This document shows positions 1 to 60,075 of a stretch of DNA of 64,000 bases, in pieces. The DNA lies in the NCBI GenBank assembly GCA_029204225.1, contig CM055102.1:14451285-14515284 (forward strand), in the 5' to 3' direction. A program made the translations under genes and the position numbers. Every line of letters begins with the position of its first letter. Within the stretch, counting starts at the first letter, position 1. The notes beneath the pieces are model-generated. The model saw only the letters and a program-made list of their open reading frames with translations, had not been told where the DNA came from and did no database searches. The DNA comes from Diphasiastrum complanatum (taxonomy: Eukaryota; Streptophyta; Lycopodiopsida; Lycopodiales; Lycopodiaceae).

Positions 1-24
1 GAGAACCAAAGCAAGGGGGCCGAG

Positions 25-918
25 GTGAAGGATGGAGCTTCAATTTCAAAGTGCAAAGGAAAGAAGGACAAGTCCAAGGAAAGGTGTTTCCTTTGTGGAA
101 AGATTCATGAGGCTTGGAGTCTCACAAAGACTTACAAGATTTGTCTTCAAAAGTCCATCATCACACATTTCAAACCTTTAGAAGTTTTTCATTTGGAAGT
201 GCATTGTTTGGTTCAAGATGCAAAGATAAATGTCACTTGGATTTGTTTCATGTCCTTGAAAAGCATTTTGCTCAGAACTTTAGAAAAGTTCAAATTTACT
301 GTTATGATCCAAGAGAAACCAAGAAAGATTAAGGAGGAGCAATCACAAAATGAAAATAGTTTCATTTATGCTCTCATGAAATCTTATGAAGAACTATTGT
401 GCTTTGAAGGGATTTTTGTATTTCAAAGGTGGATTAAGGCAATACTAGTTGAGTGTGATGCCTTAATAGATAGCAAAGCATGTTTTCCTTGTAAACTTAC
501 ATTGAATATGAAGTCAAGGAAATGGAAATGTCTTCATAATGTATTTTTTGTTGGTTTCAATAAGATCATGAATGATGTGTTCATTCATAATGTTGAAGAT
601 TGTAAATTTTCAATTTTAAAGGCAAGTTGTAAACTTCTTATGAGAATAAGTGAAGCATCCAAAGTGGACACTTATATCCATAAGCAAGTAGTTAGCCTTA
701 TTGAGATGGAAATACTTCTTGATTTCAATATTAGAAAAATCATGCCAAGTTGTGGTGAATTTTGGACTTATGTTTCTAGCATAAGTAATGTTGATGATCA
801 TATGAAGTGCACATTATATGATAATGTTTGTTGTGATCATTTTGAGACATGGAGGTCTTGGATTTCCATCAAGGAGGAGCACCAAGAAGTTGATCTTGAG
901 GAGTCATCTCAAGGTTAA
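25..918 (+). CDS. Retrotransposon ORF: gag/integrase relic plus first domain-X repeat
   Basis: 297 codons open from the start Met to a TAA at 916-918. Residues about 20-35 hold a broken zinc knuckle (CFLCGK-IHEAW, last Cys absent). The following stretch carries integrase C-terminal similarity only in a shifted frame (114-332, ending in YCYDPRETKK). From about residue 105 the frame encodes domain X, with a WIKAILVECDA segment and ASCKLLMRISEASKVDTYI near residues 198-218. The latter is almost the same as a segment of the 858-residue ORF at 53778-56354. The next ORF continues in the same frame after the single TAA, so this was probably one longer protein. Its function is unknown. It is rich in Cys, Ser, Phe and Ile, and no catalytic motif was recognised. 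Confidence 0.6.
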   Translation: MKDGASISKCKGKKDKSKERCFLCGKIHEAWSLTKTYKICLQKSIITHFKPLEVFHLEVHCLVQDAKINVTWICFMSLKSILLRTLEKFKFTVMIQEKPRKIKEEQSQNENSFIYALMKSYEELLCFEGIFVFQRWIKAILVECDALIDSKACFPCKLTLNMKSRKWKCLHNVFFVGFNKIMNDVFIHNVEDCKFSILKASCKLLMRISEASKVDTYIHKQVVSLIEMEILLDFNIRKIMPSCGEFWTYVSSISNVDDHMKCTLYDNVCCDHFETWRSWISIKEEHQEVDLEESSQG

Positions 919-1716
919 AGTGTGGCAAGGATTGAGGAGGAGAGTCCTTCTCAAGTTATGATTCCAAGAAGAATATCAAGAGACATGGTTGAGCTCATAT
1001 GGCTCACATTTCAAGGGAAAGAGGAGCACATTTCAAGTAGTATACATCTCATGCTTGTTTCTCTTATGTCATTTGGTGAATCAATTTGCTTTAGTGAGAC
1101 TTTTGCATTTCAAAGTTGGAGTAAAGCAATACTAGTTGAGTATGGTGTCTCTCTTAAGAACATAGTTGATGTTCTTAATGATATGAAATTGATTTTAGAT
1201 CAATTAGAAAGCAAATGGTTATTTCATCAAATGTATGCTCTTGAGTCTTGCAAGAGCAAGAGTGATTTGTCCACTCATAGTGTGAACAATTGTCTTTTTT
1301 CATGTATTGAGGCAAATTGTAAACTCTTTATGAGAGAAAGTGAATCATCCTCTAAGGAAACTTATCTCCATAATGAAGTATCTAGCCTCATTAGATCTGA
1401 GATTAGCATGGAAACCAAGCATGAAGATATGATACAAACTCTTTGTTATTATAGCATGCATAGTCTTGCCAATGTTGATGAGCCTAATCCTCAAGATCTT
1501 GGTAACATGATGTTGGATCTTTGTGATCCTCATGAGTCAAGAAGGACTCTTTATTTTATCATGGAGTTGCAGCTATTTTCAAGGAGGAGGAGCTTTTGGA
1601 TCAACCATATGCTTCAAGGATGGAACAAATCAATGAAAGAGGTGCTAGGATGGTGCAAAGCTCTCAAGTTCATCAAAAAAGTCAACATCAAAGAGGCATT
1701 ATCATGGATACGGTGA
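919..1716 (+). CDS. Retrotransposon ORF: second domain-X repeat
   Basis: This stretch continues the frame of the preceding ORF past one TAA codon. About 265 codons encode a second, diverged copy of domain X: WLTFQGKEEH, FQSWSKAILVEYG, a Cys-containing IEANCKLFMRESESSSKETYL segment, DLCDPHESRRTLYF, and a C-terminus KEALSWIR. The nested element's 858-residue ORF has matching blocks in the same order (WLTLHGKEGH, KAILVLYDA, EANCKLLLRLSEASKVDTY, DLHDPYEAWK, KEILSWIW). Conserved order and a conserved end suggest a once-functional protein rather than chance reading frame. There is no Met at the start, so it is unlikely to be translated alone. No known family was recognised. Confidence 0.6.
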   Translation, partial: SVARIEEESPSQVMIPRRISRDMVELIWLTFQGKEEHISSSIHLMLVSLMSFGESICFSETFAFQSWSKAILVEYGVSLKNIVDVLNDMKLILDQLESKWLFHQMYALESCKSKSDLSTHSVNNCLFSCIEANCKLFMRESESSSKETYLHNEVSSLIRSEISMETKHEDMIQTLCYYSMHSLANVDEPNPQDLGNMMLDLCDPHESRRTLYFIMELQLFSRRRSFWINHMLQGWNKSMKEVLGWCKALKFIKKVNIKEALSWIR

Positions 1717-2007
1717 TTTCGGATCGAATCAAGCTCATTGGCTGATCTTCACACCTTTTGACCAGCAAGGATCCATATTTGAAGACCAATTCAACCCATG
1801 GATTCAATCTCAATATCATCATATTTTTATCAAGTTAGTTTTGAGGAGGAGTGTTAAAACTGGCAAAAGCTAACTTGATCAAATCTTGTAAATACCATTA
1901 TGAGTAGTACATATCATCATTAGACATGTGTGGAGCCTGTTCCCATGTGTGAAATAAATGCATTTATCATTTAGATGAGTCATATAGGTTGTACATACCA
2001 TTTCATT

Positions 2008-2330: not shown

Positions 2331-2695
2331 AAAAAACTAACAAAGAATCTCATTGTGTGGTCAATTGTTTGAAAACGGTCTTGATTTAAAATTTGATGTT
2401 GACACATGTATAATCAAGAGTGAGGATGAGGTGAGAGCTAGAGGATCTAGATTTGGTTTTGATCAAGCTAGATTCTAGTGAGAGTGCTACCATTTGTGAT
2501 GTTGCCTACAAGACCAAGATCTCTCAAAAAGATTTGTGGCAAAAATTGGGCCATCCCAATTTCAAGGCCATGACATCCATGGTCAAAGATGGAAAAGCTA
2601 TTGGATTTTCAAAGTCCATATCAAAGGAGCTTCAACCTTGTGAGAAATTGCCAAAATATGGCAAATCTAGCTTTATCAAAACCGTGTAGGTTGTA
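2331..2695 (+). pseudogene. Copia pol fragment (GAG-pre-integrase region)
   Basis: Frames in this stretch read as the region between protease and integrase of a copia polyprotein: a GLDLKFDVDTCIIKSEDEV segment, then DLWQKLGHPNFKAM, the usual LWHxRLGH zinc-binding start of integrase. At least one stop (near 2476) and a frame change break it. The protease and integrase core are missing. The fragment lies within the 3' LTR of the domain-X element. Confidence 0.6.
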
Positions 2696-3194
2696 CGTAG
2701 GTGGGATCCACACGTGTATAGTAAATTTTTTGGAGTTATTGAGAGTTTCTACATTTTGAGCTATTTGGTTTTCTCTCTCTACATGAGGATTGGTGCTTGG
2801 ATTCTCTTTCTACCCGAGAGCAAGGCTTTTTTGTACTTAGTTTTTTACATCGACAAGTCTCCACACGTGTGAATGTACTTTGGTGAATGATATGTGCATG
2901 TTTCATTGTGTTCTTTCCTTATATTTGTGAGAGAGATCTTGGATTTCAATCTATGCTTGATCTTTGTGCAATCACTACATCTTAGAAGACCGTAATCACA
3001 CTTTTAGGGAGACCCACACGTAAAATTCAACAGTAGACATGAAGCGACCTGTCTCTTATCTTTAAGATTGATGGTGTTTAGTACTATATATGACAAGACA
3101 ATGAAGTTGGATGCTTTCCAATCTATATTTGTTGTTGATAAAGCAATTTCATAGAATAACTATTTTTGTAATAGTTTGAATAGTATCATAAAAG

Positions 3195-3665
3195 ATGAAA
3201 CATCATTTGCTTTGGAAATATTTGTGTCCAACATGCTTTGTGCATGATCATTCCAATGTAAGGACCAAAGAAAATCCTACATCAATGATGATAGGAGTAA
3301 TGGTAGTTTCTTTCTCTTCAAGTAGAGATTGTAGAATCTACATGTATTACATCAAAGAAGTTGTCCATGATGGAAATATGGTCTTTCATGAGTGGAAGAC
3401 TTGCAAACTTGAAGTAGCATGTATGGATCAGCGCCTTGTCCAAATCATTGATGAATTGGAGTCAAGTCAAGAGGAGGAGCAAGCTCAAGACCCAAGGACT
3501 CCAAGAAAAACCTTGAGTAGCAAGATGGAGCCATCAAGGCTCACCCATATGAATCAAGCAAGGCAAGTTGAATTTGGCAACATTCTTTATGCACTTCATA
3601 ACTTAATTCATATTTTATCAAGTGCACAAAATGCCTTGGAATTCATAGCTTGGCATAATGTATAG
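3195..3665 (+). pseudogene. Copia pol fragment (integrase C-terminus to RT linker)
   Basis: The frame holds the copia integrase C-terminal signature in worn form (CFVHDHSNVRTKENPTSMM, then YYIKEVVHDGNMVFHEWKT), followed by the acidic linker and the 'EPSRLTHMNQARQVEFGN' type sequence that precedes reverse transcriptase. The same arrangement appears better preserved at 39651-40000. RT sequence ends soon after the linker. The fragment is not functional. Confidence 0.6.
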
Positions 3666-4790: not shown

Positions 4791-7516
4791 TGTATAAAAA
4801 TACAAATCCAGACCTACCTGCAGATCAATTACATCAAACCCATGATGATTCGTCAGATATTCGATGGCACAGGAGACTATGCCATATGAACTCAATGACA
4901 TTGTATCAAGCAAGCCATCATGGAGCTATCAAAGGGGTGAGCATCTCGAATGCAACCAGTTCGACGACCTGTGATGCATGTATAAAAGGTAAGATGTCAC
5001 GTACTCTTTTTGTCAAGGACTCCTACAGACAACAAAGATTCTAAAGCTAGTACATTTGGACATCTGCGGACCTTTCGACGTGATCTCAGTAGGAGGCTTG
5101 AAGTACTATATCACCTTTATTGATGATTACAGTAAATTCGTCCGAGTCTACTTCATTCACAACAAATCAGAGGCATTTGACAAGTTCACATAATATGTGA
5201 ATTGGACAGAAAGATGCACAAAAAATAAGGTGTTAGCAGATCAGAACAGATCGGGGTGGAGAACACATCTCAAACCGATTCACTGATTTCTGCAATGATC
5301 GAGAAATCATTCACAGAAGGACAACATCCTATACACCGCAGCACAATGATGTTGCAGAAAGAAAGAACAGAACTCTCATGGAAGCCGCTAGGTGCATGAT
5401 GGCCTATTTGAAGGCTCCAAGAGTGCTGTGGGCTAAAGAAATAGCTACAGCTGCCTACATTCAGAACAAGAAATGAAAATCTGGTGTTCCTCACACAACA
5501 CCACATGAACTATGGTGGGGTAGAAAACTCACTCTAAGTCATGTTCGAATCTTTGGCTGTGGAGCATATGCACACGTTCCTGACAAGCTTCGGAAGAAGC
5601 TTGATGAGAAAGCAGAACAAGGATATCTTGTAGGATATGACAATCATTCGTCATACTACAGAATTTATATGCCAGAGACAAACACAGTGAAGACAATCAG
5701 AGACGTCAAGTTCAATGAGACCAGAACAATGGCCAACAATGATCCTGTCAATTATGAAGTTCTTGGAAGACAATATTATGATCTACCAATTGTGATAGAG
5801 GGAGCAAAGGACGAACACTCAGACGAAGATGTTCGAGTCAAGTGACAAATCAGACAAAGAAAAATTCGCAAGCCTGCCTACTGCTACTACACCTGTAAAC
5901 CGAAACGGTTCCGGACCTAGCAGAACAGAAAATCTGAAGAGTTTTGTGGATTCAGTGGAGAACCACAAACATTCAAAGAAGCAATTGAATGTCCAGAGAA
6001 GGACAAATGGATCCAAGCCATGAACAAAGAAATCGAATCCATGAAGAAGAATGAGGTATCATACACTACAACCAGTGCTAGGGAAGCAAAAAACAGTGCA
6101 ATGCAAATGGGTTTACAAACTCAAGTATGGACCGAATGGAGATGTTTCGAGATACAAGGCCAGATTTGTAGGGAAGGATTTTTCTTAGAAGTACGACATC
6201 GACTACACTAAGACCTTTTCTCCAGTGGTGAAGCATGCTTCCTTACGCCTACTATTTGCATATGCAGCTACATACGACCTCAAGATTCACATCATTGATG
6301 AGAAGACAACATTCCTACATGGCAAATTAGACGAAGAAGTCTATATGGATCAACCTCCAGGCTACATTTCGAACTCACTTCCTACTTTTGTATATGTGAA
6401 CGACACCCTGATACAATGCAGAAGCAAATACTTGATTGCAGAAGTGAAGAATGAGATCTTGAAACATTTCGAGAATATAGACCTAGGAGAAGCCAGATGA
6501 TATCTTGGCTTATAGATTGTCATAGACTATGACGAAGAGAGATTATACTTTCATCGGTCCAAAAATATACCCAAAAAATTCTAGAAGATTTTGGAATGAT
6601 GAATTGCGAAGAAACAACTACTCCAATGCTTGCAGGAACAATCTTGACAAATGAAGATTGTTCGAAGACTGAGAGGTAAGAGAATTGATGCAACACACAC
6701 CATATAGGAAACTAATCAGATCACTAATGTATCTTGCAAATAACACACGCCCTGAAGCTTATGCCATGTTCAAGATGAGTCAATTCAGTACGAATCCAGA
6801 CTCGACTCATTGGAAGATCGCACTTGCAGTACCTTCAACTAACGAAGGATTTTGGGTTGTGTTATTCTTGTGATGCAGCAGGATTCCAGATGCTTTCATA
6901 CAGTGATGCTAGTTGGGCATCTCTCAAGGATGACTTCAAAAGTGTCTCAGGAGGATGTACCATCGCAGCAGGAGCAACAATTCTCTGGGTCAGCAGAAAG
7001 CAGACCATCGTAGCTTAGTCATCCTACGTAGCATAATACGTAGCAGCAACAAAGATGGCCAATAAAATCACTTGGCTCAAACAGTTCCTTGACGAATTAG
7101 GTGAAACGAGAAATGAACCTCTGATTTTGCAGATGGACAATACATCCGCAATACACTTGACAAAGGATTCCGTATTTCACTCAAGGACGAAACACATTCC
7201 AATCAAGTACCACTTGATAAGAGATCTGATCGAAAAGAAGAAGCTACAGACTACTTTCGTTGGGACAAAGAAGATGGTTGCTGACATCTTCACAAAGGCC
7301 TTAGACAAAGGTTTGTTCGAGAAACAGAGAGTTAGTCTTGGAGTCATAAAGCTACCACGCTTTGAGAGAGAGCTGAAGAAACGAAATTTTTATGTTACCA
7401 AAGCTCTACTAGCTCTCGATTCCCAACCTCGAAAAATGAAGATCTCAAAGACCTCGAAAACGAAGACCTCGAAGACGAAATGTTCGCGAACAACAGGAGA
7501 AGGTCAAACGACGTGA
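4791..7516 (+). pseudogene. Copia pol (family 1): pre-integrase, integrase, RT, RNase H, decayed
   Basis: A plus-strand copia pol with several stops and frameshifts. 4806-5044 carries the integrase zinc-binding start (WHRRLCHMNS, then CDACIKGKMSR). 5050-5490 is the integrase core in changing frames (LDICGPFDV, FIDDYSK). 5500-5810 is the integrase C-terminus. 5950-6500 is reverse transcriptase and 6880-7330 RNase H (QMDNTSAIHLTKD, RTKHIPIKYH, VADIFTKAL). RT has lost about 60 residues: NSLP runs straight into the catalytic strand at 6390. The catalytic YVDD reads YVND (6393-6404). It is nonfunctional. A family-1 LTR follows. The relatives at 37365-38914 and 51560-60075 show what is missing. Confidence 0.85.
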
Positions 7517-17249: not shown

Positions 17250-17379
17250 GCAAAGAAGGAAGAAAAATGAAAGAAAAAGTTGATCACTCATATTTATTGT
17301 TTGTTTGATGTATTTTTTCAAAGAGTTCAAGCATGGTGAAATCATTTCATTTACATTCTATTTGATTCTTCATGTACTA

Positions 17380-17620
17380 GTTACGTCTTGACATGTAAAA
17401 TTGATGTAAGAAATAGTGAAGCATCCCAAGTGGACACTATTCTCTATATCAATTATGGTTGTTTCTATTTTGAGCATTACATGATCATTGAAAGGAGATC
17501 TATGAAGAAGATCATTCTTATGATGGATCAAATTTCTATGGTCAAAACTATGCTAGGAGCAAGCATGTTGAGGTGCAACAACATTTCATGAGGGAGCAAG
17601 GCTGATCGTCGAAGATCAGC
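17380..17620 (+). pseudogene. Copia fragment with domain-X and RNase H pieces
   Basis: This lies in a stretch missing from duplication copy 2. 17400-17440 encodes RNSEASQVDT, matching the SEASKVDTY core of domain X (646-672 and the nested element). 17540-17600 matches the RNase H end of copia ('GASKHVEVQQHFMREQ' in a shifted frame). The two together suggest a deleted member of the domain-X family inserted into copy 1. Confidence 0.45.
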
Positions 17621-39650: not shown

Positions 39651-41549
39651 TTCAAAGCATGAAGCTCTGATAGGATATGCATCCACTAAAAAAGCATACA
39701 AGATTTATTTGCCCTCTACTGACAAGAATGTTGTTGGTTGAGATGTGATCTTCCATGAAGATCAGAAGTTTAACTTGGATGATGCACAGATCAAGGAGAC
39801 TCATGCAAGATCTACAATCATCAATCTTGATGTTGTTCAAGAAGAGGTGAGGCCGAGGCTTGAGGAAGAGCAAATTCAAGCTACCACACCCAGAAGACCT
39901 ACACGAGCAAGATCTGAGCCAAGGAGGCTCACATATGATGAAGAAGGAAGGCAAGTGGAAGGTGAAACTTCCTATCATGCACTTTTTATATCAGATGAAG
40001 AGCCTGAGGATGTCCAAGAAGCTTTTCAATCCAAGGAGTGGGTTGAAGCAATGACCCAAGAATTTGAAGCCTTGATGTCAAATAACACATGGGAGCTTGT
40101 GGAGCCACCAAACAACATGCATGTGATTGGATGTAAGTGGGTATTCAGACTCAAGTATAATCATGATGGATCTATCAATATGTATAAAGCAAGACTTTGT
40201 GCCAAAGGCTACTCACAGATCAAAGTTCTTGACTATGAAGACACCTTTGCACCAGTTGCAAAGATGGTAACAATTTGAATACTCATATCTCTTGCATGTT
40301 TTCACAAATGGAGTATGTTCCAGCTTGATGTTTCTAATGAATTTCTCAATGGTTACCTTGAGGAGGAGATTTATATGGAACAGCCTCCAGGTTTTGTGAA
40401 GGAAGGTGATGAATCAAAAGTTTTTCTTTTGTTCAAAAGTCTGTATGGACTGAAATAGGCACCAAGGTCTTGGTATGCAAGGCCCAATTCCTATCTCATA
40501 TCACTCGGATTTTGTCTAAGTGAATATGACCCTTCTCTGTATTATAAGTTTGTAGATAACTTTGTAATTATTCTTCTCATCTATGTAGATGATATCATTC
40601 TTTGTGGAAACAATGAGAAGTTAGTTGAAGAAACTAAGCATGCACTTGGTACTGAGTTTAAGATGCAAGACTTAGGAGTTCTTCACTATATTCTAGGCCT
40701 TGAAATAGATTTTCGGAAAGGTCATGCATTTATAAGCCAAAGTAGATATGCACTTTCCATGCTCAAGAAATTCCATATGGAGAACCGTAAAGGCATAGAT
40801 ACACCTATGGAGCACACTGTAAAAGTTCCTATTAAAGATGATGAAAAATCCTTTGAGGACATCACTCTTTATAGGAGTCTTATTGACTCACTTATTTGGT
40901 TAATAGTGACTAGGCCTTATCTATGCTTTTGTCTTCATAAGCTAAGTCAACACATGCAGGATCCAAAGTTATATCATTGGAAGTTGGCTAAAAGAGTCTT
41001 GAGGTATATATCTTCTACCTTGGATTATGGACTATACTGCAAAGGAGAAGATCTAACTTTGATTGCTTTTTTAGATTCAGATTTTGCAGGAGACAGGTTG
41101 GACAGGAAATCCAAAAGTGCTTACACTATATTTGTTGGAGGAAATTTGGTTTGTTGGCTATCAAAGAAGCAGGCAACTATTTCCGTATCATCCTATGAAG
41201 CTGAATACAAATCTCTTACAACTACAACAAAGGAGGTTTTATGGATCAAAAGGCTACTTTTGGAACTAAAGTGTTATGCAAATGAAGATTTACCAATTAT
41301 CAAGAATGATAACATTTCTGCCCAGGCTCTTGTAAATAATCCAGTCGTCATGCAAGGAGCAAGCATATTGAAGTGGCTCATCATTTTGTAAGAGAAAAGT
41401 CATTGGGAGAGAGATCTCATTGGAGCATGTTTCATCTTCAGATTGTGTTGCAGATCTTCTCACCAGACCTCTACTCAGAAATGTGTTTATGAAGATGAGG
41501 TCTAACCTTGGCCTAATTTCAAAATCTATGTTGATAGGAACATAAATTT
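39651..41549 (+). pseudogene. Copia pol 3' half: linker, RT, RNase H (near-intact)
   Basis: The best-preserved polymerase in the window. Integrase C-terminus and acidic linker 39651-40000. RT 40010-40660: EAFQSKEWVEAMTQEFEALM, GCKWVFRLKYNHDGS, FQLDVSNEFLNGYLEEEIYM, KSLYGLK, LLIYVDDIILCGN with intact YVDD (40582-40593). Connection and RNase H 40663-41500: MQDLGVLHYILGLEI, FLDSDFAGDRLDRKS, SSYEAEYKSLTTTTKEVLWI, DCVADLLTRPLL. Stops at 40276 and 40456 look like single C-to-T changes (CGA/CAG type), and a frameshift lies near 41350. The LTR that follows carries the family-2 motif, so this is the RT-bearing relative of the domain-X elements. Confidence 0.85.
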
Positions 41550-52595: not shown

Positions 52596-52855
52596 AATGG
52601 CATCAATCAGCAGTATACAGTCAAAGATCTGCACATCCTCAACTCAGAAGGGTCAAACTTCCTAGCATGGAAGATAAAGACCTCTCTCATATTGAAGGGA
52701 GAAGGGCTATGGCCCTGGGTAGACGGCACCGAAGAAATGCCTACAACTACAGGCAAAGAGCTACGTGAATGGAGAGAGAAAAACAACAAGGCAATAGTTG
52801 TGTTGTCATCATCCATTGAGGATAGCCTGACGCTTGATCTCATGACACTCTCTAA
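52596..52855 (+). pseudogene. Copia family-1 gag, 5' part, split by nested insertion
   Basis: Frame with TVKDLHILNSEGSNFLAWKI, LKGEGLWPWVDGTEEMPTTT, REWREKNNKAIVVLSSSIED and SLTLDLMTLSN, i.e. a copia gag N-terminal domain. The gag start codon may be the ATG at 52597, which lies one frame off. The gag stops at 52855, where the nested element begins, and resumes in the same frame at 57934 (AREMWDTLFTRFQTK). The five bases TCTAA occur on both sides. Confidence 0.85.
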
Positions 52856-53650
52856 TGTTGAATTTCACACGTGTGGACTGTCCATTACATGTACTTGTGA
52901 TCTCCTAAGGTGTGTAGATGCACCAAGATTAAGACTAGATTGAGATTCAAGATCAATCTTAGATCCTATGGCAAAAACACACTACTACATGCATTCAATC
53001 ACTTCCAAATCTCACTCACACGTGTGGGAAGTGTTCCAAAGGTATTCTAAGTAAAAACAAGCTGCTCTCCTCGGGTAGAGAGAGAAAGCTAGAAATTCAA
53101 TGACACTCAAAATCCACTCAATCTCAAAATCAATTAGATCCAAAATGAGGAGTACAATGATACTAGTAGATTCATAAGCTACCACTATGCTTAACTATGA
53201 TTGGATCACACTTTGCCACCTCTTAATCCTATTGGACCATTGATCCATGCACCTCTAAATTCTATTGGACTATATTCAAGCACACCTCAAATTCCTATTG
53301 GACCACACATGGTTCCACCTCTAAAACCTATTGGACCTCTTAAACTTCATCAAACAAAAGCATTACACTTGTCTACACTCTAATTGGAACAATTTTGGCC
53401 TCCTACTCTATTTTGGCTCAATAGTGGCATTACAAGTGGAAATGGATAATTTGCCATCTATGCCAAATTTGACCCTATCAACATCCTACACCTAAATGCT
53501 TGACTATGAAATTCCATGAGACCCCTGTATCAAGCATTTTGATTTACTTTACAATTCTCCACACGTGGGAACATCCTCCACACATGTGAGATTCACTTAC
53601 AAACTTCTATCATAAAAAATACCAAGCTAGATTTTTGCCAATTTCTCACA
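52856..53650 (-). repeat. 3' LTR of the nested element
   Basis: 795 bp. Read on the minus strand it begins TGTGAGAAATTGGC and ends GTGAAATTCAACA. It has one copy of the CTCTCTCTACCCGAG motif, where the partner LTR has two, owing to a 32-bp indel. Confidence 0.95.
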
Positions 53651-53665
53651 CTCTTCCTCAAAAAA
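53651..53665 (-). promoter_or_regulatory. Polypurine tract of the nested element
   Basis: Minus strand ...TTTTTTTGAGGAAGAG ends exactly at the 3' LTR start. The purine part matches GAGGAGGAG at 1843-1851 in the other domain-X element. Confidence 0.75.
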
Positions 53666-53777
53666 ATAGCCTGGAAAGGTACTAGATCACTTGAGAAGTA
53701 TGTAAATCTTTTTCAGTGGATCCTTTGGTATGCATAAGAAGTGAAGATCAACCAAGGGATCCATCATAGCAGCACCC

Positions 53778-56354
53778 TCACCATATCCATGATAAGATCT
53801 CTTTGGTAGAGATCTCTTGCCAATGCCTTTGAAGAGTGCTCCACCAATATGCCACTATGATCATGGGCTTCCTCCATGCTTGATGATGATATTTGATTTG
53901 AAAGTTCCACTTGCATGATGGATGCACCATAAATAGAGAAATTTGAGGCTTCCAAGCCTCATAAGGATCATGGAGATCAAGATCATAAGATGTGAAACAA
54001 TGATGAGTATCAAGATTATGCTTTCTAGCTTGACTAGTCCACATACAATGAACTATATCCATAATGGATCTAATCTTGATATCAAAGACTATCTTGATCT
54101 TTTTTAGGCTAGTTACTCTCTCAAGGATGTAAGTGTCCACTTTGGATGCTTCACTTAATCTCAAGAGGAGTTTACAATTTGCCTCAAAACATGTAAATAC
54201 ATGATTTTCAAAAAAGTGAGTACCAAGCTCAATCTTGTTCTTACTAGAACCAAGAGCATACTTTTGACAATACAATATCTTGTTTTCAAAAAGTATTGGA
54301 AACACATCTAAGTCAATAATGACAAAAAACATGTCCATACCATAAGCATCATACAAAACTAGTATAGCTTTTCTTGAATTTTGAGATCCAAAAAATTCAA
54401 TGAAGCAAGATAGCATTTCAAGCAAAGGAAGAGAAGCATATATGAATGTGTTGTAGTAGATACAACATGAAAGATGCCCCTCTTTGCCATGTAAGGTGAG
54501 CCATAAAGACTCGGCCATGCATCTTGAAGATCTTCTTGAAATCATATGAAGAAGAAACTTCTCCTCACACATTGGCCCCATCATAACTTGAATACCTTCA
54601 AAAAAGATAACTTGTGATGCTTCTTGAGAAGCCTTGATCTCGGCCACTTCCAAGATTGAATCTTCATGCAATGTGACATCTCTATTCACAATCATTTTTG
54701 AAATAGAGAGTGTAAAGACACTAAAGGCCTCCTTGATGGATGAGTATCCAATCATGATCCATGAGCTTGGATCATCCTTCCTTCTTGTTTCCAAGGGAAT
54801 ATGTGCAAAGCAAGCACTACCAAGTTCACTAAGGTGATCAACCTTAGGCTTCATCTTGAATAAAACTTCATATGGTGCTATTCCTTCAAGATCTCCAATA
54901 CTCCTCAAAGCTTTGATCTTCAATGAGAATTTCTTCTCAACATATGCTTTGAATAATAAGGAATAATCATACACCATAATACTTGAAGAGAGAAGATATG
55001 TGCATCTTGTGTGATCATTCTCCTTTGAAATATTGGACATATAAGAAACATCAAGAGAGTTTGCACTCTCACTTAGATCCAATTTGTAGATGCCTTCAAA
55101 TCTTGATCCATATGCAAGGATCTCATCATCCTTCTTGATCACACAATTGTCAATATTGAAATTGACATCAAAGCCACTATCAAGAAGTTGGCCAACACTT
55201 AAGATGTTCTTTGTAAGCTTTGGGACAAAAAGAACATTGTTGAGAAAGAGATCTTTAGAAGATGCAAGCTTCAAGGGAATAATCCCTACTCCTTCAATAT
55301 TGCACTCATGCTTACTTGCAAAGTATATGGTCTTCTTGACTCCATCATAAGGCAAAATAGATGAAAAAAAGTGCTTGGAGCCACACATATGTGAAGATGC
55401 TCCACTATCAATATACCATGAGTCATCCTTGTTGAAGGTGGAAGAGGAGAAGCTTGATGCCATAAGAGAGCCTTCTCCATCACTTGAAATATAGTCTTCT
55501 TTCTCATTGGTGATGTTGGCTTGATTGAGTTGAATCTTCTTCTTGAAGCAATTGGTGGCATAATGGCCTTTCTTGCCACAATAAAAGCACTTGATCTTCT
55601 TCTTCTTGAGATTTGAAGTAGAAGCATGAGAGGTATCCTCCTCCTCCTCTCCATCTTGGTCTTTAGCTTTGTCATTAGATAAGTGATGGTGTTTCTTCTT
55701 ACTCCTCTCTTTGTGCTTGGCAAATAGAACTTTGCCATCATCATGATTGAGTGATAGCTTGTCCATCCTCAAGAGTTTGTACTCTTGTCTTGATTCTTCA
55801 GAAATAAGCACACTTTGAAGGGCCTCAAAACTTGGTAGCTCCTCCTTAATGGCATAGGAGTGGACAAGGTTGTCATATTCATCTCTCAAGCCATTGAGAA
55901 TGACTTGGACTTGCTCACTTTGATTGATTGAGTCACCAATACATGCAAGCTCCCTATGAATATCCTTGACTCTCAAAACATAATTAGATGCACTCTCATC
56001 ACTCTTTTGACTACTTTGGAATATTTGATTTCTAAGAGTGAGGAGCCTAGAGGTGTTCTTAGCCTCATAGATGGACTTGAGACAATCCCAAGCTTCCTTG
56101 GATGTAGAACAATCACCAATCTCCCTCAATATCTCATTAGAGACAATCATCTTAATGTAGTGGAGAGCCATCCTAGCTCTCTTCTTGTATTTTTGTACTT
56201 CTTGAAGGACTTGAGGCTCCTCCTCAATCCCAAGTACAATGTCCATCACATCTTGGAGTATCAAGATGGACTCCATCCTCAACTTCCATATTGAATAATT
56301 GGAAGTAGACAATCTCTCACTTGGTTGCAACAAGTATGAACTCATTGAATTCAT
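53778..56354 (-). CDS. 858-residue copia polyprotein: gag, protease, integrase remnant, domain X
   Basis: One uninterrupted frame from the ATG at 56354. Residues 1-200 are a UBN2-type gag. 250-275 is a zinc knuckle C256-X2-C259-X4-H264-X4-C269. Protease active site DSG is at 316-318 (WYIDSGASSH). 370-440 is the pre-integrase region. At about 480-490 the integrase core is cut: KALRS (where the second Asp block begins) jumps to APYEVLFKMKP and the integrase C-terminus (to about 575). Residues 580-858 are domain X, ending KEILSWIW. There is no reverse transcriptase or RNase H. An open frame of this length in a decayed neighbourhood fits the low LTR divergence. The protein could still form particles and mature them. 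What domain X does is unknown. Confidence 0.9.
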   Translation of the reverse strand: MNSMSSYLLQPSERLSTSNYSIWKLRMESILILQDVMDIVLGIEEEPQVLQEVQKYKKRARMALHYIKMIVSNEILREIGDCSTSKEAWDCLKSIYEAKNTSRLLTLRNQIFQSSQKSDESASNYVLRVKDIHRELACIGDSINQSEQVQVILNGLRDEYDNLVHSYAIKEELPSFEALQSVLISEESRQEYKLLRMDKLSLNHDDGKVLFAKHKERSKKKHHHLSNDKAKDQDGEEEEDTSHASTSNLKKKKIKCFYCGKKGHYATNCFKKKIQLNQANITNEKEDYISSDGEGSLMASSFSSSTFNKDDSWYIDSGASSHMCGSKHFFSSILPYDGVKKTIYFASKHECNIEGVGIIPLKLASSKDLFLNNVLFVPKLTKNILSVGQLLDSGFDVNFNIDNCVIKKDDEILAYGSRFEGIYKLDLSESANSLDVSYMSNISKENDHTRCTYLLSSSIMVYDYSLLFKAYVEKKFSLKIKALRSIGDLEGIAPYEVLFKMKPKVDHLSELGSACFAHIPLETRRKDDPSSWIMIGYSSIKEAFSVFTLSISKMIVNRDVTLHEDSILEVAEIKASQEASQVIFFEGIQVMMGPMCEEKFLLHMISRRSSRCMAESLWLTLHGKEGHLSCCIYYNTFIYASLPLLEMLSCFIEFFGSQNSRKAILVLYDAYGMDMFFVIIDLDVFPILFENKILYCQKYALGSSKNKIELGTHFFENHVFTCFEANCKLLLRLSEASKVDTYILERVTSLKKIKIVFDIKIRSIMDIVHCMWTSQARKHNLDTHHCFTSYDLDLHDPYEAWKPQISLFMVHPSCKWNFQIKYHHQAWRKPMIIVAYWWSTLQRHWQEISTKEILSWIW

Positions 56355-57090
56355 GTAAAGTGAAGATAAATAAAGGTGATGAACAAAAAATGTTGCTTCT
56401 CTCTCACTATAGGATCCAATAATGATGTGCTACCATCTCCTATGCAAGATCTTGCAACAAACTGTGAGATGATTCTCACTAGCTATCTCAATCTCTCCAA
56501 AACTAGATCTACTTCACATCAAATGGAGTATGGGAAAAGTTAGGATCAAACACTCTTAGCACGTGTGAAATACACTAAGAAACCAAATTTGACTCAAATA
56601 CAATGATATTGCATGAAACAAAATGGCTAAGATCTCAAAACAGTGCCTAGATCACATACAGATGAGATTGGTAAGCATTCAACTGTGATTTTGGATCAAA
56701 CAAGCAATCTCTTGACCAAACCAAATGTGTCCACCCAAGTCTATGTGCCCTACCTAACCCTCTTCAAAAGCTTATAACTTTTGATTGGCTCAACCAAATG
56801 GAATGAAACTGATTGCATCAAAAACTAGACAAAAATAGCTTCAAAATAAGCTACCTAGCAAGATTTTTGGATCAAACATGAAAGAGAACTCCCAAACTGA
56901 AATTGGATGTTCCTCACACGTGTCTGAGCACCTGATTCTGTACAGTACCAGGTCAGACCCAATCAATGTCCTTTGATCTCTTTTGATCCAAAATTGAACA
57001 AGATAGCTAGGAAAATGGGCCTTGACAATTTCTAGCTCAAGATTGATGAATAGTTTTCACTCAAATGGATCAAAATGCATGGTAACCTTA

Positions 57091-57107
57091 GGTAGGCTCT
57101 GATATCA
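57091..57107 (-). promoter_or_regulatory. Primer-binding site of the nested element
   Basis: Minus strand TGATATCAGAGCCTACC directly follows the 5' LTR. One mismatch from TGGTATCAGAGC. Confidence 0.8.
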
Positions 57108-57928
57108 TGTTGAATTTCACACGTGTGGACTGTCCACTACATGTACTTGTGATCTCCTAAGGTGTGTAGATCCACCAAGATCAAGACTAGATTGAGATTC
57201 AAGATCAATCTTAGATCCTATGGCAAAAACACACTACTACATGCATTCAATCACTTCCAACTCTCACTCACACGTGTGGGAAGTGTTCCAAAAGTATTCT
57301 AAGTAAAAACAAGCTGCTCTCCTCGGGTAGAGAGAGAAAAACCATCATGAGCTCTCGGGTAGAGAGAGAAAGCTAGAAATTCAATGACACTCCACTCAAT
57401 CTCAAAATCAATTAGATCCAAAATGAGGAGTACAATGATACTAGTAGATTCATGAGCTACCACTATGCTTAACTATGATTGGATCACACTTTGCCACCTC
57501 TTAATCCTATTAGGCCATTGATCCATGCACCTCTAAATTCTATTAGACTATATTCAAGCACACCTCAAATTCCTATTGGACCACACATGGTTCCACCTCT
57601 AAAACCTATTGGACCTCTTAAACTTCATCAAACAAAAGCATTACACTTGTCTACACTCTAATTGGAACAATTTTGGCCTCCTACTCTATTTTGGCTCAAT
57701 AGTGGCATTACAACTGGAAATGGATAATTTGCCATCTATGCCAAATTTGACCCTATCAACATCCTACACCTAAATGCTTGACTATGAAATTCCATGAGAC
57801 CCCTATACCAAACATTTTGATTTACTTTACAATTCTCCACACGTGGGAACATCCTCCACACATGTGAGATTCACTTACAAACTTCTATCATAAAAAATAC
57901 CAAGCTAGATTTTTGCCAATTTCTCACA
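57108..57928 (-). repeat. 5' LTR of the nested element
   Basis: 821 bp. Pairs with 52856-53650. Keeps both TACCCGAG motif copies (57320-57372). Confidence 0.95.
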
Positions 57929-57933
57929 TCTAA

Positions 57934-58570
57934 TGCAAGAGAGATGTGGGATACATTGTTTACCAGATTTCAGACGAAATCACGCATCCAGATAATGCTT
58001 CTCGAAGATCAACTGACAAATCTACGATGGGATGGCAGAGACCTTACCTCCTTTATCAGAAAGATGAAGGATCTGTTCCTCTCATTACACAATTCTGGAA
58101 CAGAAAATGCAGTATCAACAGAGAAGCAACTCACCTATCTGTTAAGAGTTTTACCAAGATCCTTCCAGACAACACGAACATTGCTAGCAAAGGATCCAGG
58201 TATGACACTCGAAAAGGCAGTGATCAAAATTTGACAATAAGTCAAAGCTCGTGAGCACCTTGATCACAAGGACGCTTCTAACCAAGCTCTCTACAGTAAC
58301 AAAGAAAGGCCAAAGAAGCAGCTCAAGCCTAAGAGGGAGTCAGACTGAAGGCAGTAGACCGAAGGCAGGATTGAGACCAACAAGCAGAGGGAGCCAACAA
58401 AGGTGGTTGGAAGAACAAAAGGAAAGTCTAAATAGTAGAATGGCGACAAGAAAACATGCGTGAGATGCAGATGCGAAGGACATACTGTCGATTCATACTA
58501 GCTCAATCCGAAGATTGAGTGTATCCATTGTCACAAAAAGGGTCATGCAGCTATGGACTATTACTAGAAC
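57934..58570 (+). pseudogene. Copia family-1 gag, 3' part with two zinc knuckles
   Basis: Continues the gag frame of 52596-52855: AREMWDTLFTRFQTKSRIQI, LEDQLTNLRWDGRDLTSFIR and KQLTYLLRVLPRSFQTTRTL, to a TGA at about 58236. After a frame change two zinc knuckles follow: CVRCRCEGHTVDSY near 58460-58497 and CIHCHKKGHAAMDYY near 58527-58567. In both the last Cys is replaced by Tyr, with TAG codons close by where Trp is expected. These are single G-to-A changes. Confidence 0.8.
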
Positions 58571-58659
58571 CAAAAAACAAACAATCTCAAGGCAAACGGG
58601 AGAACAATAATAGTTCATCCTATGTCAAAGAGTCAGAAACCTCGAAGATGGGCGAAGAA

Positions 58660-60010
58660 AGATCGAATCATGGAAATTCGACCACCTACATCTGTGCAGA
58701 CATGTGTGCAGTATCGACACCTGAGACACAGGAGGTAATCTTTGATTAAGGAGCAACCTCACACTTCGTTACATCAAGACGGATAATGTCTGACTTTCGG
58801 AGTGTAGATCCATCAAGATTTATTATTCTTGGAGACGGATCGAAACATCAAGTGAACGGTATTGGTTTGTTGTGGCTCAACACAAACGGTAGAGACAGAT
58901 GACTCGAAGATGTTATGTTTGTACCTACATTGCAGCAAGACTTAATTTCAGTCGCAAGGATAGCAGATGCTGGGATGCGTGTGACATTTTCACACGAAAC
59001 ATGTAACGTTGTTGATGCAAGCACCTGTACATGGATTACACAAGGTAGAAGAAAGGGCAACCTGTATCACTTGAAGGTATGCCTACCAACAGATCAATTA
59101 CATCAAACTCATGATGATTCATCAGATATTCTATGGCACAGGAGACTATGCCATATGAACTCAATGGAATTGTATCAAACAAGCCATCATGGAGCTATCA
59201 CATGGGTGAGCATCTCGAATGCAACCAGTTCGACGACCTATTATGCATGTATAAAAGGTAAGATGTCATGTACTCCTTTTGTCAAGGACTCCTACAGAAA
59301 ACCCAATCTGAGTCATGTTCGAATCTTTGGCTGTGTAGCATATGTACACGTTCCTGACAAGCTTCGGAAGAAGCTTGATGAGAAAGCAGAACAAGGATAT
59401 CTTGTAGGATATGACAATCATTTATCATACTATAGAATCTATATGCCAGAGACAAACACAGTGAAGACAGTCAGAGACGTCAAGTTCAATGAGACCAGAA
59501 CAATGGCCAACAATGATCCTGTCAGTTATGAAGTTCTTGGAAGACAATATTATGATCTATCAATTGTGACAGAGGGAGCAGAGGACGAACACTCAGACGA
59601 AGATGTTCGAGCCACACCTCAGTCAAGCGATGAATCAGACGAAGAAAGATTCGCAAGCCTACCTACTACTACTACACCTGTAAACCGAAACGGTTATGGA
59701 CCTAGCAGAACAGATAAATGCAAGAGCATTGCAGTACCCGAAGGATCTCCTAGAAGATCAACAAGAGAGCAAAGAGCGCCAGCAAGATTTGTGTCAGGTA
59801 GCTCAACTTCTACATCTAAAGAGTTTTGTGGATTCAGTGGAGAACCACAAACATTCGAAGAAGCAATTGAATGTCCAGAGAAGGACAAATGGATCCAAGC
59901 CATGAACGAAGAAATCAAATCCATGAAGAAGAATGAGGTATGGACACTGCAACCAGTGCTAGGGAAGCGAAAAACAGTGCAATGCAAATGGGTTTACAAA
60001 CTCAAGCATA
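58660..60010 (+). pseudogene. Copia family-1 protease to RT start, integrase core deleted
   Basis: Protease active site near 58742-58760 reads D-stop-GATSHF, TAA replacing the Ser codon. From 58915 a 382-codon frame is open: FVPTLQQDLISVARIADAGM, ILWHRRLCHMNSMELYQTSH and YYACIKGKMSCTPFVKDSYR. It then jumps in frame to LSHVRIFGCVAYVHVPDKLR, so the whole D-D-E integrase core (about 150 residues) is missing. The integrase C-terminus, acidic linker and RT start (AIECPEKDKWIQAMNEEIKS, KTVQCKWVYKLKH) follow, and RT is cut at 60010. Closely related to 4791-6120. Confidence 0.85.
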
Positions 60011-60011
60011 G

Positions 60012-60075
60012 ATTTGCCTGTTTTATCTATTCCGCACATAGGTTCAATCTTGTTGAATGCTGAATTAACTAAACA
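60012..60075 (+). repeat. Family-1 LTR fragment at a rearrangement junction
   Basis: About 62 bp matching 8041-8101 inside the LTR is fused to the RT stub on the left and to the segmental duplication on the right. The rest of RT, RNase H and most of the LTR are deleted. Confidence 0.7.

What the first reader, a model, noticed from the sequence alone, without database searches (positions are those of the whole stretch)
53778..54617. Unrecognised 'domain X' takes the place of RT and RNase H in an intact copia polyprotein
In the nested element an 858-residue ORF runs gag, protease, truncated integrase, then about 280 residues of no recognised family, ending shortly before the polypurine tract. 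The frame is free of stops although neighbouring elements are riddled with them, and LTRs are about 98% identical. Non-autonomous LTR elements usually lose coding sequence. Gaining or keeping a fused extra domain in place of the polymerase is unusual and may mark a distinct parasitic lineage.
Basis: partly seen in the sequence, partly recalled or inferred. Interest (0 to 1): 0.8.

Follow-up and report, generated by a model that had tools for sequence, protein, structure and literature searches.

The report
Decayed retrotransposon polymerase with conserved hairpin
The unrecognised stretch in this plant-type jumping element looks like what is left of its own copying enzyme, with the catalytic part cut out and the protein sequence drifting freely, yet it has stayed free of stop codons and has kept a small fold-back structure that an enzyme-bearing relative nearby also carries.

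Summary
A complete 5.07-kb copia-type element (52856-57928, minus strand; LTRs 98.35% identical; TSD TTAGA) has one 858-aa ORF: gag, zinc knuckle, protease, integrase SH3 remnant, then about 280 residues (X) with no Pfam or PDB match. The "extra domain" reading does not hold. X recurs twice, in tandem, in a second element (1-1716). Through those copies its first ~100 residues match the IN-RT linker and RT N-terminus of a copia in the window. Its core lies in the same codon phase as that element's RT C-terminal segment. About 190 codons, including the YVDD palm, are missing. Between X copies dN/dS is about 1 with no third-position excess, yet there are no in-frame stops where neutral drift predicts about 6-9 per lineage. 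AlphaFold gives pLDDT 38. The unexpected part is a 58-nt hairpin in the core. It recurs in a palm-bearing RT gene (40822-40883) and in a fourth fragment (17397-17459). Twelve of 23 pairs show compensatory double changes (0 of 500 shuffles). I read X as a frame-preserved RT ghost carrying a cis-acting hairpin, perhaps a packaging or replication signal. Function is inferred; RNA selection versus DNA palindrome correction is open. The host genome could not be searched.

The parts
52851..52855 (.). target-site duplication TTAGA, 3' side
52856..53650 (-). 3' LTR (TGTGAG...CAACA)
53651..53663 (-). polypurine tract TTTTGAGGAAGAG
53778..56354 (-). single 858-aa ORF: gag-protease-integrase remnant-X
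55782..56276 (-). gag (Retrotran_gag_2, residues 27-191)
55545..55595 (-). CCHC zinc knuckle (residues 254-270)
55170..55418 (-). protease region (Pol_BBD, residues 313-395; WYIDSGASSHM)
54657..54857 (-). integrase C-terminal SH3-like remnant (residues 500-566); integrase core not found
53781..54620 (-). 'domain X' (X3), residues 579-858: decayed, internally deleted RT region
54243..54545 (-). X N-terminal part: IN-RT linker plus RT N-terminal segment (MISRRSS..KYALGSS)
   Evidence: by homology with X2 and X1; X3 alone is not significant against RT
54112..54173 (-). conserved hairpin in X3, in codon phase with the RT C-terminal segment
53945..53960 (-). second candidate hairpin GAGGCUUGGAAGCCUC (lead only)
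57096..57107 (-). primer-binding site TGATATCAGAGC, one mismatch to the pattern TGGTATCAGAGC (tRNA-Met by recall)
57108..57928 (-). 5' LTR
57929..57933 (.). target-site duplication TTAGA, 5' side
1..918 (+). second element: end of gag (degenerate zinc knuckle) fused to X1 (homologous part 355-870); TAA at 916-918; the element's 5' part lies outside the window
919..1716 (+). X2, second tandem copy of X, same frame as X1; ends at a TGA homologous to that of the nested ORF
631..692 (+). hairpin in X1
1321..1382 (+). hairpin in X2
1839..1851 (+). PPT TTTTGAGGAGGAG of the second element; LTR starts at 1852
17397..17459 (+). fourth hairpin copy (D17k) in a short fragment; an RNase H end motif (YARSKHVEVQQHF) lies about 90 nt downstream
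40822..40883 (+). fifth hairpin copy inside the RT/RNase H ORF 40459-41388 of a copia element that keeps YVDD
39742..41388 (+). RT-RNase H region of that copia element (three pieces in one frame parted by two stops), used as the RT yardstick

Best explanation
This is a recently inserted, non-autonomous (Gag-protease) copia element. 'Domain X' is the leftover of its own RT region. An ancestral deletion of about 190 codons took out the catalytic palm in the original frame, and the rest has since drifted without detectable amino-acid constraint. Two things have stayed: the reading frame remains open up to about 130 nt before the LTR, and a 58-nt hairpin remains in the segment that once encoded the RT C-terminus. 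Shown: ORF anatomy, homology to RT, missing palm, dN/dS about 1 with no stops, and a covarying hairpin shared with a palm-bearing RT gene. Inferred: the element is copied in trans by an autonomous partner. The hairpin is a cis-acting signal, most likely for recognition of the genomic RNA by Gag or RT (packaging or replication), which a trans-mobilised copy must keep. The frame is kept open because an early stop would leave a long 3' UTR and expose the RNA to nonsense-mediated decay, or otherwise upset translation of the genomic RNA.
For: RT origin: X2 with linker against the 39742 RT ORF scores 76, 0 of 2000 shuffles as high (X1 1 of 2000); the part after the linker alone 2 of 2000 (X2) and 4 of 2000 (X1). 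Profile of the X segments after the linker against this RT: 3 of 2000; linker profile 12 of 2000. All five hairpin copies share one codon phase. From the RT N-terminal motif to the hairpin is 648 nt in the RT gene, 69 nt in X3 and 72 nt in X2 (193 and 192 codons less); YVDD is present in the RT gene and absent from X1, X2 and X3. No amino-acid constraint: omega 1.02, 0.87, 0.99 and 0.94, 0.96, 1.23; DNA-only alignments differ at codon positions 1/2/3 by 0.334/0.356/0.299; three-way identity 0.188 against 0.211 expected for a star tree of independent sites; pLDDT 37.8. Frame kept: neutral simulation (kappa 2.5) expects 9.1, 8.7 and 5.7 stops for X3, X2 and the X1 core; 0, 0 and 0 seen. Hairpin: four copies, 8 of 23 pairs doubly changed, 0 of 500, alifold z -6.6, 0 of 500; with the RT copy 12 of 23, 0 of 500, z -17. 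The model with structure scores the RT copy 44.9 bits (E 1.3e-8), the sequence-only model 11.4 bits (E 0.018). The RT copy alone folds at z -3.66, 0 of 200.
Against: X3 alone shows no significant match to the RT N-terminus (1341 of 2000 after the linker, 195 of 2000 with it), and no X matches the RT start of the 58903 copia (284-1090 of 2000). With a profile of both RTs, X2 gives 10 of 1000 and X1 55 of 1000. In the six-frame ranking the RT piece is not among the nine best listed for the linker or post-linker profile, and the middle profile has no protein-level RT signal (1346 of 2000). No RNase H similarity of X passed. The amino-acid composition of X3 and X2 departs from that of random translation (0 of 1000 each; X1 96 of 1000), and a codon-position bias in base composition remains (z 2.6 X3, 4.4 X2, 3.7 X1 core; gag 5.2, protease 14.1). 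Single-sequence fold energies of the X3 and X2 hairpins are unremarkable (z -0.76 and -0.36 at 44 nt). G-U pairs are rare (98 Watson-Crick, 4 G-U, 2 A-C cells), so sense RNA is not distinguished from a DNA palindrome. The gag and protease controls rest on distant relatives and do not isolate this element's own branch. The RT-lacking hairpin loci were found by X or hairpin similarity, so that they keep the hairpin is no independent evidence. Another copia with the same RT motif (6655-6716) has no such hairpin. Packaging and NMD roles were not tested.
Confidence: 0.6

Rival explanations
1. The hairpin has no function: it is a quasi-palindrome that template switching or snap-back synthesis keeps correcting, so 'compensatory' pairs arise in single mutational events. 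X is then simply a decayed RT whose frame is kept open for other reasons.
For: Stems are almost purely Watson-Crick (98 WC, 4 G-U, 2 A-C, 11 other cells), more like a DNA palindrome than a typical evolving RNA stem; the D17k copy also matches the model on its minus strand (20.5 bits).
Against: Three of the five bulge bases and the inner UCC/GGA stem are invariant in all five copies and the same shape recurs in the RT gene; palindrome correction does not explain conservation of unpaired bases.
Confidence: 0.25
2. X is a genuinely new, fast-evolving protein domain under diversifying selection that happens to average dN/dS = 1.
For: Open frame in three copies; composition of X3 and X2 not random; codon-position composition bias remains; one block of about 70 codons has omega 1.2-1.3.
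Against: No third-position excess, no excess of shared residues, BLOSUM score of changes at or near the neutral value, no fold from a shallow alignment, no family match above cut-off; the longest identical DNA stretch is conserved at synonymous sites too and forms a hairpin.
Confidence: 0.08
3. The X frame is open only because these copies are young relics of a coding RT; no selection keeps it open.
For: The nested LTRs are 98.35% identical, so this copy had little time to decay after insertion.
Against: X1, X2 and X3 differ by about 0.5-0.6 substitutions per site at synonymous and nonsynonymous sites alike, which predicts 6-9 stops per lineage; 0 were seen, and X1 and X2 were found by similarity, not by openness.
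Confidence: 0.08
4. X is a captured host gene fragment.
For: Host gene capture by plant LTR elements is known (search listing of PMC3726574).
Against: Linker and RT N-terminal similarity and in-phase hairpin homology with the RT gene. No host database was on hand to exclude capture for the unassigned tail (about 110 residues).
Confidence: 0.05

Closest known systems
RLG_Quinta (wheat centromeric non-autonomous gypsy element; PMC11302176, passages read)
   Same: One ORF with GAG followed by a domain of unknown function, RT and INT missing, presumed mobilisation by an autonomous partner.
   Different: Gypsy, not copia (classing recalled); the passages call DUF1 unexplained and possibly acquired later, while here the unknown stretch traces in part to RT and carries a covarying hairpin.
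TR-GAG elements (PMC8704663, passages read; e.g. AT5TE33540)
   Same: LTRs plus one gag-bearing ORF; can transpose without encoding RT or IN.
   Different: Here protease and a 280-residue decayed RT region are fused in frame.
TARE1 of tomato (mutated copia-like family, PMC3701649, search listing and abstract start only)
   Same: A mutated copia family that still amplified.
   Different: Not compared in detail; the paper was not opened.
Defective-interfering viral genomes (recalled)
   Same: Works like: internal deletions remove the polymerase but keep cis-acting signals.
   Different: Analogy only; no interference tested.

Membership tests
Ty1/copia superfamily | copia-type gag and protease | tested here: met
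   Retrotran_gag_2 2.6e-27, Pol_BBD 9.2e-24
Ty1/copia superfamily | LTRs TG..CA, PBS, PPT, 5-bp TSD | tested here: met
Ty1/copia superfamily | integrase upstream of RT-RNase H, all present | tested here: not met
   Only the integrase SH3 remnant; no rve, RVT_2 or RNase H listed. A derivative, not an autonomous member.
TR-GAG | single gag ORF between LTRs, no pol enzymes | tested here: inconclusive
   Single ORF without RT or IN core, but protease and X are fused
Gag+DUF non-autonomous pairs (Quinta type) | autonomous partner with matching LTR ends and PBS | tested here: inconclusive
   A short LTR stretch (67 nt, 80.6%) is shared with the 36.8-41.5 kb copia, but the pattern scan found no matching LTR start, end or PBS there
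Conserved RNA structure element | covariation beyond phylogeny, many sequences | tested here: inconclusive
   Strong in 5 copies but only 5, from one window
Conserved RNA structure element | match to a described Rfam family | tested here: not met
   0 matches at gathering threshold in the window; 5 sub-threshold matches at 53900-54400, none at the hairpin
Conserved RNA structure element | function shown by disruption | not testable with these tools
   needs a bench test

The most novel reading that the evidence does not exclude
A copia lineage carries a cis-acting bulged hairpin inside its RT gene that its own proteins recognise for packaging or replication. Trans-mobilised descendants behave like defective-interfering genomes: they lose RT as a protein, keep the hairpin (even in duplicate), and keep an open but amino-acid-free reading frame through the dead gene, so that selection acts on stops and structure and not on the protein.
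Probability: 0.32. Interest if true: 0.78.

Novelty: new variant of a known kind. Interest (0 to 1): 0.6.

Why it matters
A non-autonomous plant LTR element with a Gag-plus-unknown ORF has been described as carrying a domain of unknown function (RLG_Quinta, PMC11302176, passages). This case suggests that such a 'domain' can be a polymerase ghost whose frame and nucleic-acid shape, not protein, are preserved. That can be checked wherever many copies exist. It also offers a candidate location for a cis-acting signal of copia elements, inside the RT gene, and a reason why deletion derivatives would keep some pieces and lose others.

Tried and rejected
Pfam on X3 and on X1 and X2: no family above its cut-off (X2's best is DUF4957, E 0.015, 15.6 bits against a cut-off of 30.8). 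PDB sequence search with the X profile: 0 hits. Viral contigs with the X alignment, the RT piece and gag-protease: 38, 3 and 14 pattern matches, none confirmed. The hairpin pattern gave 0 in viral contigs and 10 exact matches in prokaryote contigs, judged chance (17 fixed bases in 257 Gb) and not read. An RNase H origin of the X tail: similarities seen by eye were not supported (164, 225 and 143 of 1000 shuffles as high for X3, X2 and X1). A CKW..KY match of the X3 tail to RT (0 of 1000; tail profile 3 of 2000) lies at a place not homologous with the RT start of X2 and X1; it is unexplained and was set aside. A fold search was not run because the model is too poor (pLDDT 37.8). Other structured windows in X: near 53945-53960 (z -6.1, 0 of 1000, but double changes 260 of 1000) and near the start of X (z -3.6, 4 of 1000, no double changes); both stay leads. 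The enod40 paper (PMC10578108, passages and section 19) reports a copia stretch downstream of the codons between integrase and RT, shared with enod40; not shown to be the same place, so left aside. Print searches for a matching case: (open-licence PMC papers only, some lists capped); none listed describes, by title or abstract start, an RT-gene hairpin of plant copia or a frame-kept RT ghost. Passages of four of these papers were opened.

Full report
The element. The 858-aa ORF at 53778-56354 (-) is real and unbroken. It sits in a complete LTR element, 52856-57928, with a PBS, a PPT, 98.35% identical LTRs (777 of 790 ungapped positions, plus indels of 6 and 32 nt) and the 5-bp duplication TTAGA. 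Pfam sees gag, a zinc knuckle, protease and the integrase SH3 remnant, and nothing in residues 579-858. The copia elements suggest a plant, which is inference.

X is not alone. tblastn of the ORF against the window finds X twice more on the plus strand, at 355-870 (X1) and 958-1710 (X2), at 35-37% identity (for X alone E 2e-20 and 1e-32; alignments). They lie head to tail in one frame, parted by a single TAA at 916-918. The second element runs from a degenerate gag zinc knuckle (1 and 2 of 500 shuffles in two overlapping comparisons) into X1 and X2, and ends in a PPT and LTR start like those of the nested element. So X belongs to a small lineage.

Where X comes from. An RT-bearing copia at 36.8-41.5 kb serves as yardstick (RVT_2 1.4e-15 and 3.3e-20 on two pieces). 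X2 aligns with its IN-RT linker and RT N-terminus (score 76, 0 of 2000 shuffles). Without the linker, X2 (2 of 2000) and X1 (4 of 2000) still do; X3 alone does not (1341 of 2000), and no X matches the RT start of a more distant copia at 58903 (284-1090 of 2000). A profile of the three X segments after the linker gives 3 of 2000, the linker profile 12 of 2000, the middle profile 1346 of 2000 and the tail profile 3 of 2000, the last at a place I cannot explain. With a profile of both RTs, X2 gives 10 of 1000 and X1 55 of 1000. A 156-aa ORF at 3195-3665 matches both this RT (0 of 1000) and the nested ORF after residue 500 (0 of 1000), though not X2 (63 of 1000) or X1 (757 of 1000). The core of X is placed by the hairpin described below: its copy in the RT gene lies in the same codon phase, at the K......D.TLYRSL..SL segment (motif recalled). 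From RT N-terminal motif to hairpin is 648 nt in the RT gene but 69 in X3 and 72 in X2, and the YVDD box is missing from X1, X2 and X3. From the hairpin to the stop is 334 nt in both X3 and X2. X is therefore best read as RT with an ancestral in-frame deletion of the palm. The last ~110 residues stay unassigned; an RNase H origin was not supported.

How X evolves. Omega between X copies is 1.02, 0.87 and 0.99, or 0.94, 0.96 and 1.23 with another aligner. In alignments of DNA alone, pooled over the three pairs and counting in-phase sites only, the codon positions differ by 0.334, 0.356 and 0.299. Shared residues among three copies (0.188) do not exceed the star-tree expectation (0.211). The mean BLOSUM score of changes is -0.72, -0.97 and -0.48 against -0.72 (sd 0.11) in neutral simulation, so one pair lies two sd below and one two sd above. 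By contrast, eight gag, protease and SH3 fragments in the window compared with the nested ORF have pN/pS 0.33-0.59 (nine rows, two being the same fragment), though dS is near or at saturation in several, two short protease rows have intervals reaching 1, and they do not isolate this branch. Against pure neutrality, X3 and X2 keep a non-random composition and a codon-position bias in base composition. Yet no stop has entered: simulations expect 9.1 (X3), 8.7 (X2) and 5.7 (X1 core) per lineage at kappa 2.5, with 150 runs per setting; over nine settings only X1 at kappa 5 ever gave 0. AlphaFold on the three-row alignment gives mean pLDDT 37.8, with 0 of 280 residues at 70 or more; the alignment is shallow, so this alone is weak.

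The hairpin. The longest identical DNA stretch between X1 and X3 is 28 bases. A 24-mer search found a fourth copy at 17415-17438 with one mismatch. The four fold alike, though X2 and X3 alone are no better than shuffles. On a MAFFT alignment of the four made from sequence alone, 8 of 23 pairs carry changes on both sides (0 of 500 shuffles; slid versions at most 4). The structure counted was the RNAalifold consensus of the same alignment, so that count leans towards it; the column-shuffle test, which refolds each shuffle, gives z -6.6 (0 of 500), and three X alone z -5.2 (0 of 500; double changes 13 of 500). The stretch was picked after the hairpin had been seen. A covariance model from the four finds a fifth place, 40822-40883, inside the RT/RNase H ORF, E 1.3e-8; the next hit is the other strand of copy four at 0.031. 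A sequence-only model gives that place 11.4 bits and E 0.018, sixth in its list behind one unrelated hit. E-values of these models are rough. The RT copy folds into the same shape on its own (z -3.66, 0 of 200; in a 106-nt context z -2.06, the inner part kept). With it, 12 of 23 pairs are doubly changed (0 of 500), z -17; as the fifth copy was found with the structure model, these two figures lean towards the structure. One copia of another lineage (6655-6716) has no hairpin there. A scan of 25 windows of X puts the strongest at this hairpin (z -7.1), two neighbouring windows near 53945-53960 at about -6 and one near the start of X at -4.3; no window of a gag pair falls below -2.5. Sense and antisense cannot be told apart: 4 G-U against 2 A-C cells. 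Rfam has no match.

Mechanism. Shown: Gag and protease coding kept, RT as a protein lost, frame and hairpin kept. Inferred: the element needs an RT and integrase in trans, as TR-GAG elements do when they transpose (PMC8704663, passages), and like RLG_Quinta with its Gag plus unknown domain (PMC11302176, passages). A copy that is mobilised in trans must keep cis signals, and a hairpin shared by X and an RT gene fits such a signal. The invariant parts, three of five bulge bases and an inner UCC/GGA stem, look like a protein-binding site; I think packaging or replication most likely (about 0.35). The open frame may protect the RNA: long 3' UTRs promote decay by NMD (PMC5031192, passages), and a stop at the start of X would lengthen the 3' UTR by about 840 nt. 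This is untested. The main rival is palindrome correction without function.

Limits. The window's own genome could not be searched, so all copies come from one 64-kb window. The print searches cover open-licence papers only.

Noticed in passing
1-1716: Second element with two tandem X copies fused to the end of gag, with no protease or integrase between; one TAA between the X copies.
   Followed up: yes
17340-17602: Short fragment with the hairpin and an RNase H end motif about 90 nt downstream, perhaps a different deletion derivative.
   Followed up: partly
3195-3665: 156-aa open frame matching the integrase end, IN-RT linker and start of RT; another decayed but open copia piece.
   Followed up: partly
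53945-53960: Second candidate hairpin in X with changed but still pairing stems in X2; covariation not beyond chance.
   Followed up: partly
53830-53910 (tail of X3): CKW..KY stretch in the X3 tail that matches the RT start at a place not homologous with X1 and X2; unexplained.
   Followed up: partly
2359-3032: Protease fragment of a relative directly followed by an LTR (2639-3032) with the same ends as the nested element.
   Followed up: no
57108-57928 and 52856-53650: LTRs contain repeated CACACGTGT (G-box-like) motifs; the 5' LTR has a 32-nt insert relative to the 3' LTR.
   Followed up: no
57934-60063: The nested element probably lies antisense in another copia element (plus-strand ORF 58903-60060 with GAG-pre-integrase and SH3 domains); the other flank was not checked.
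   Followed up: no
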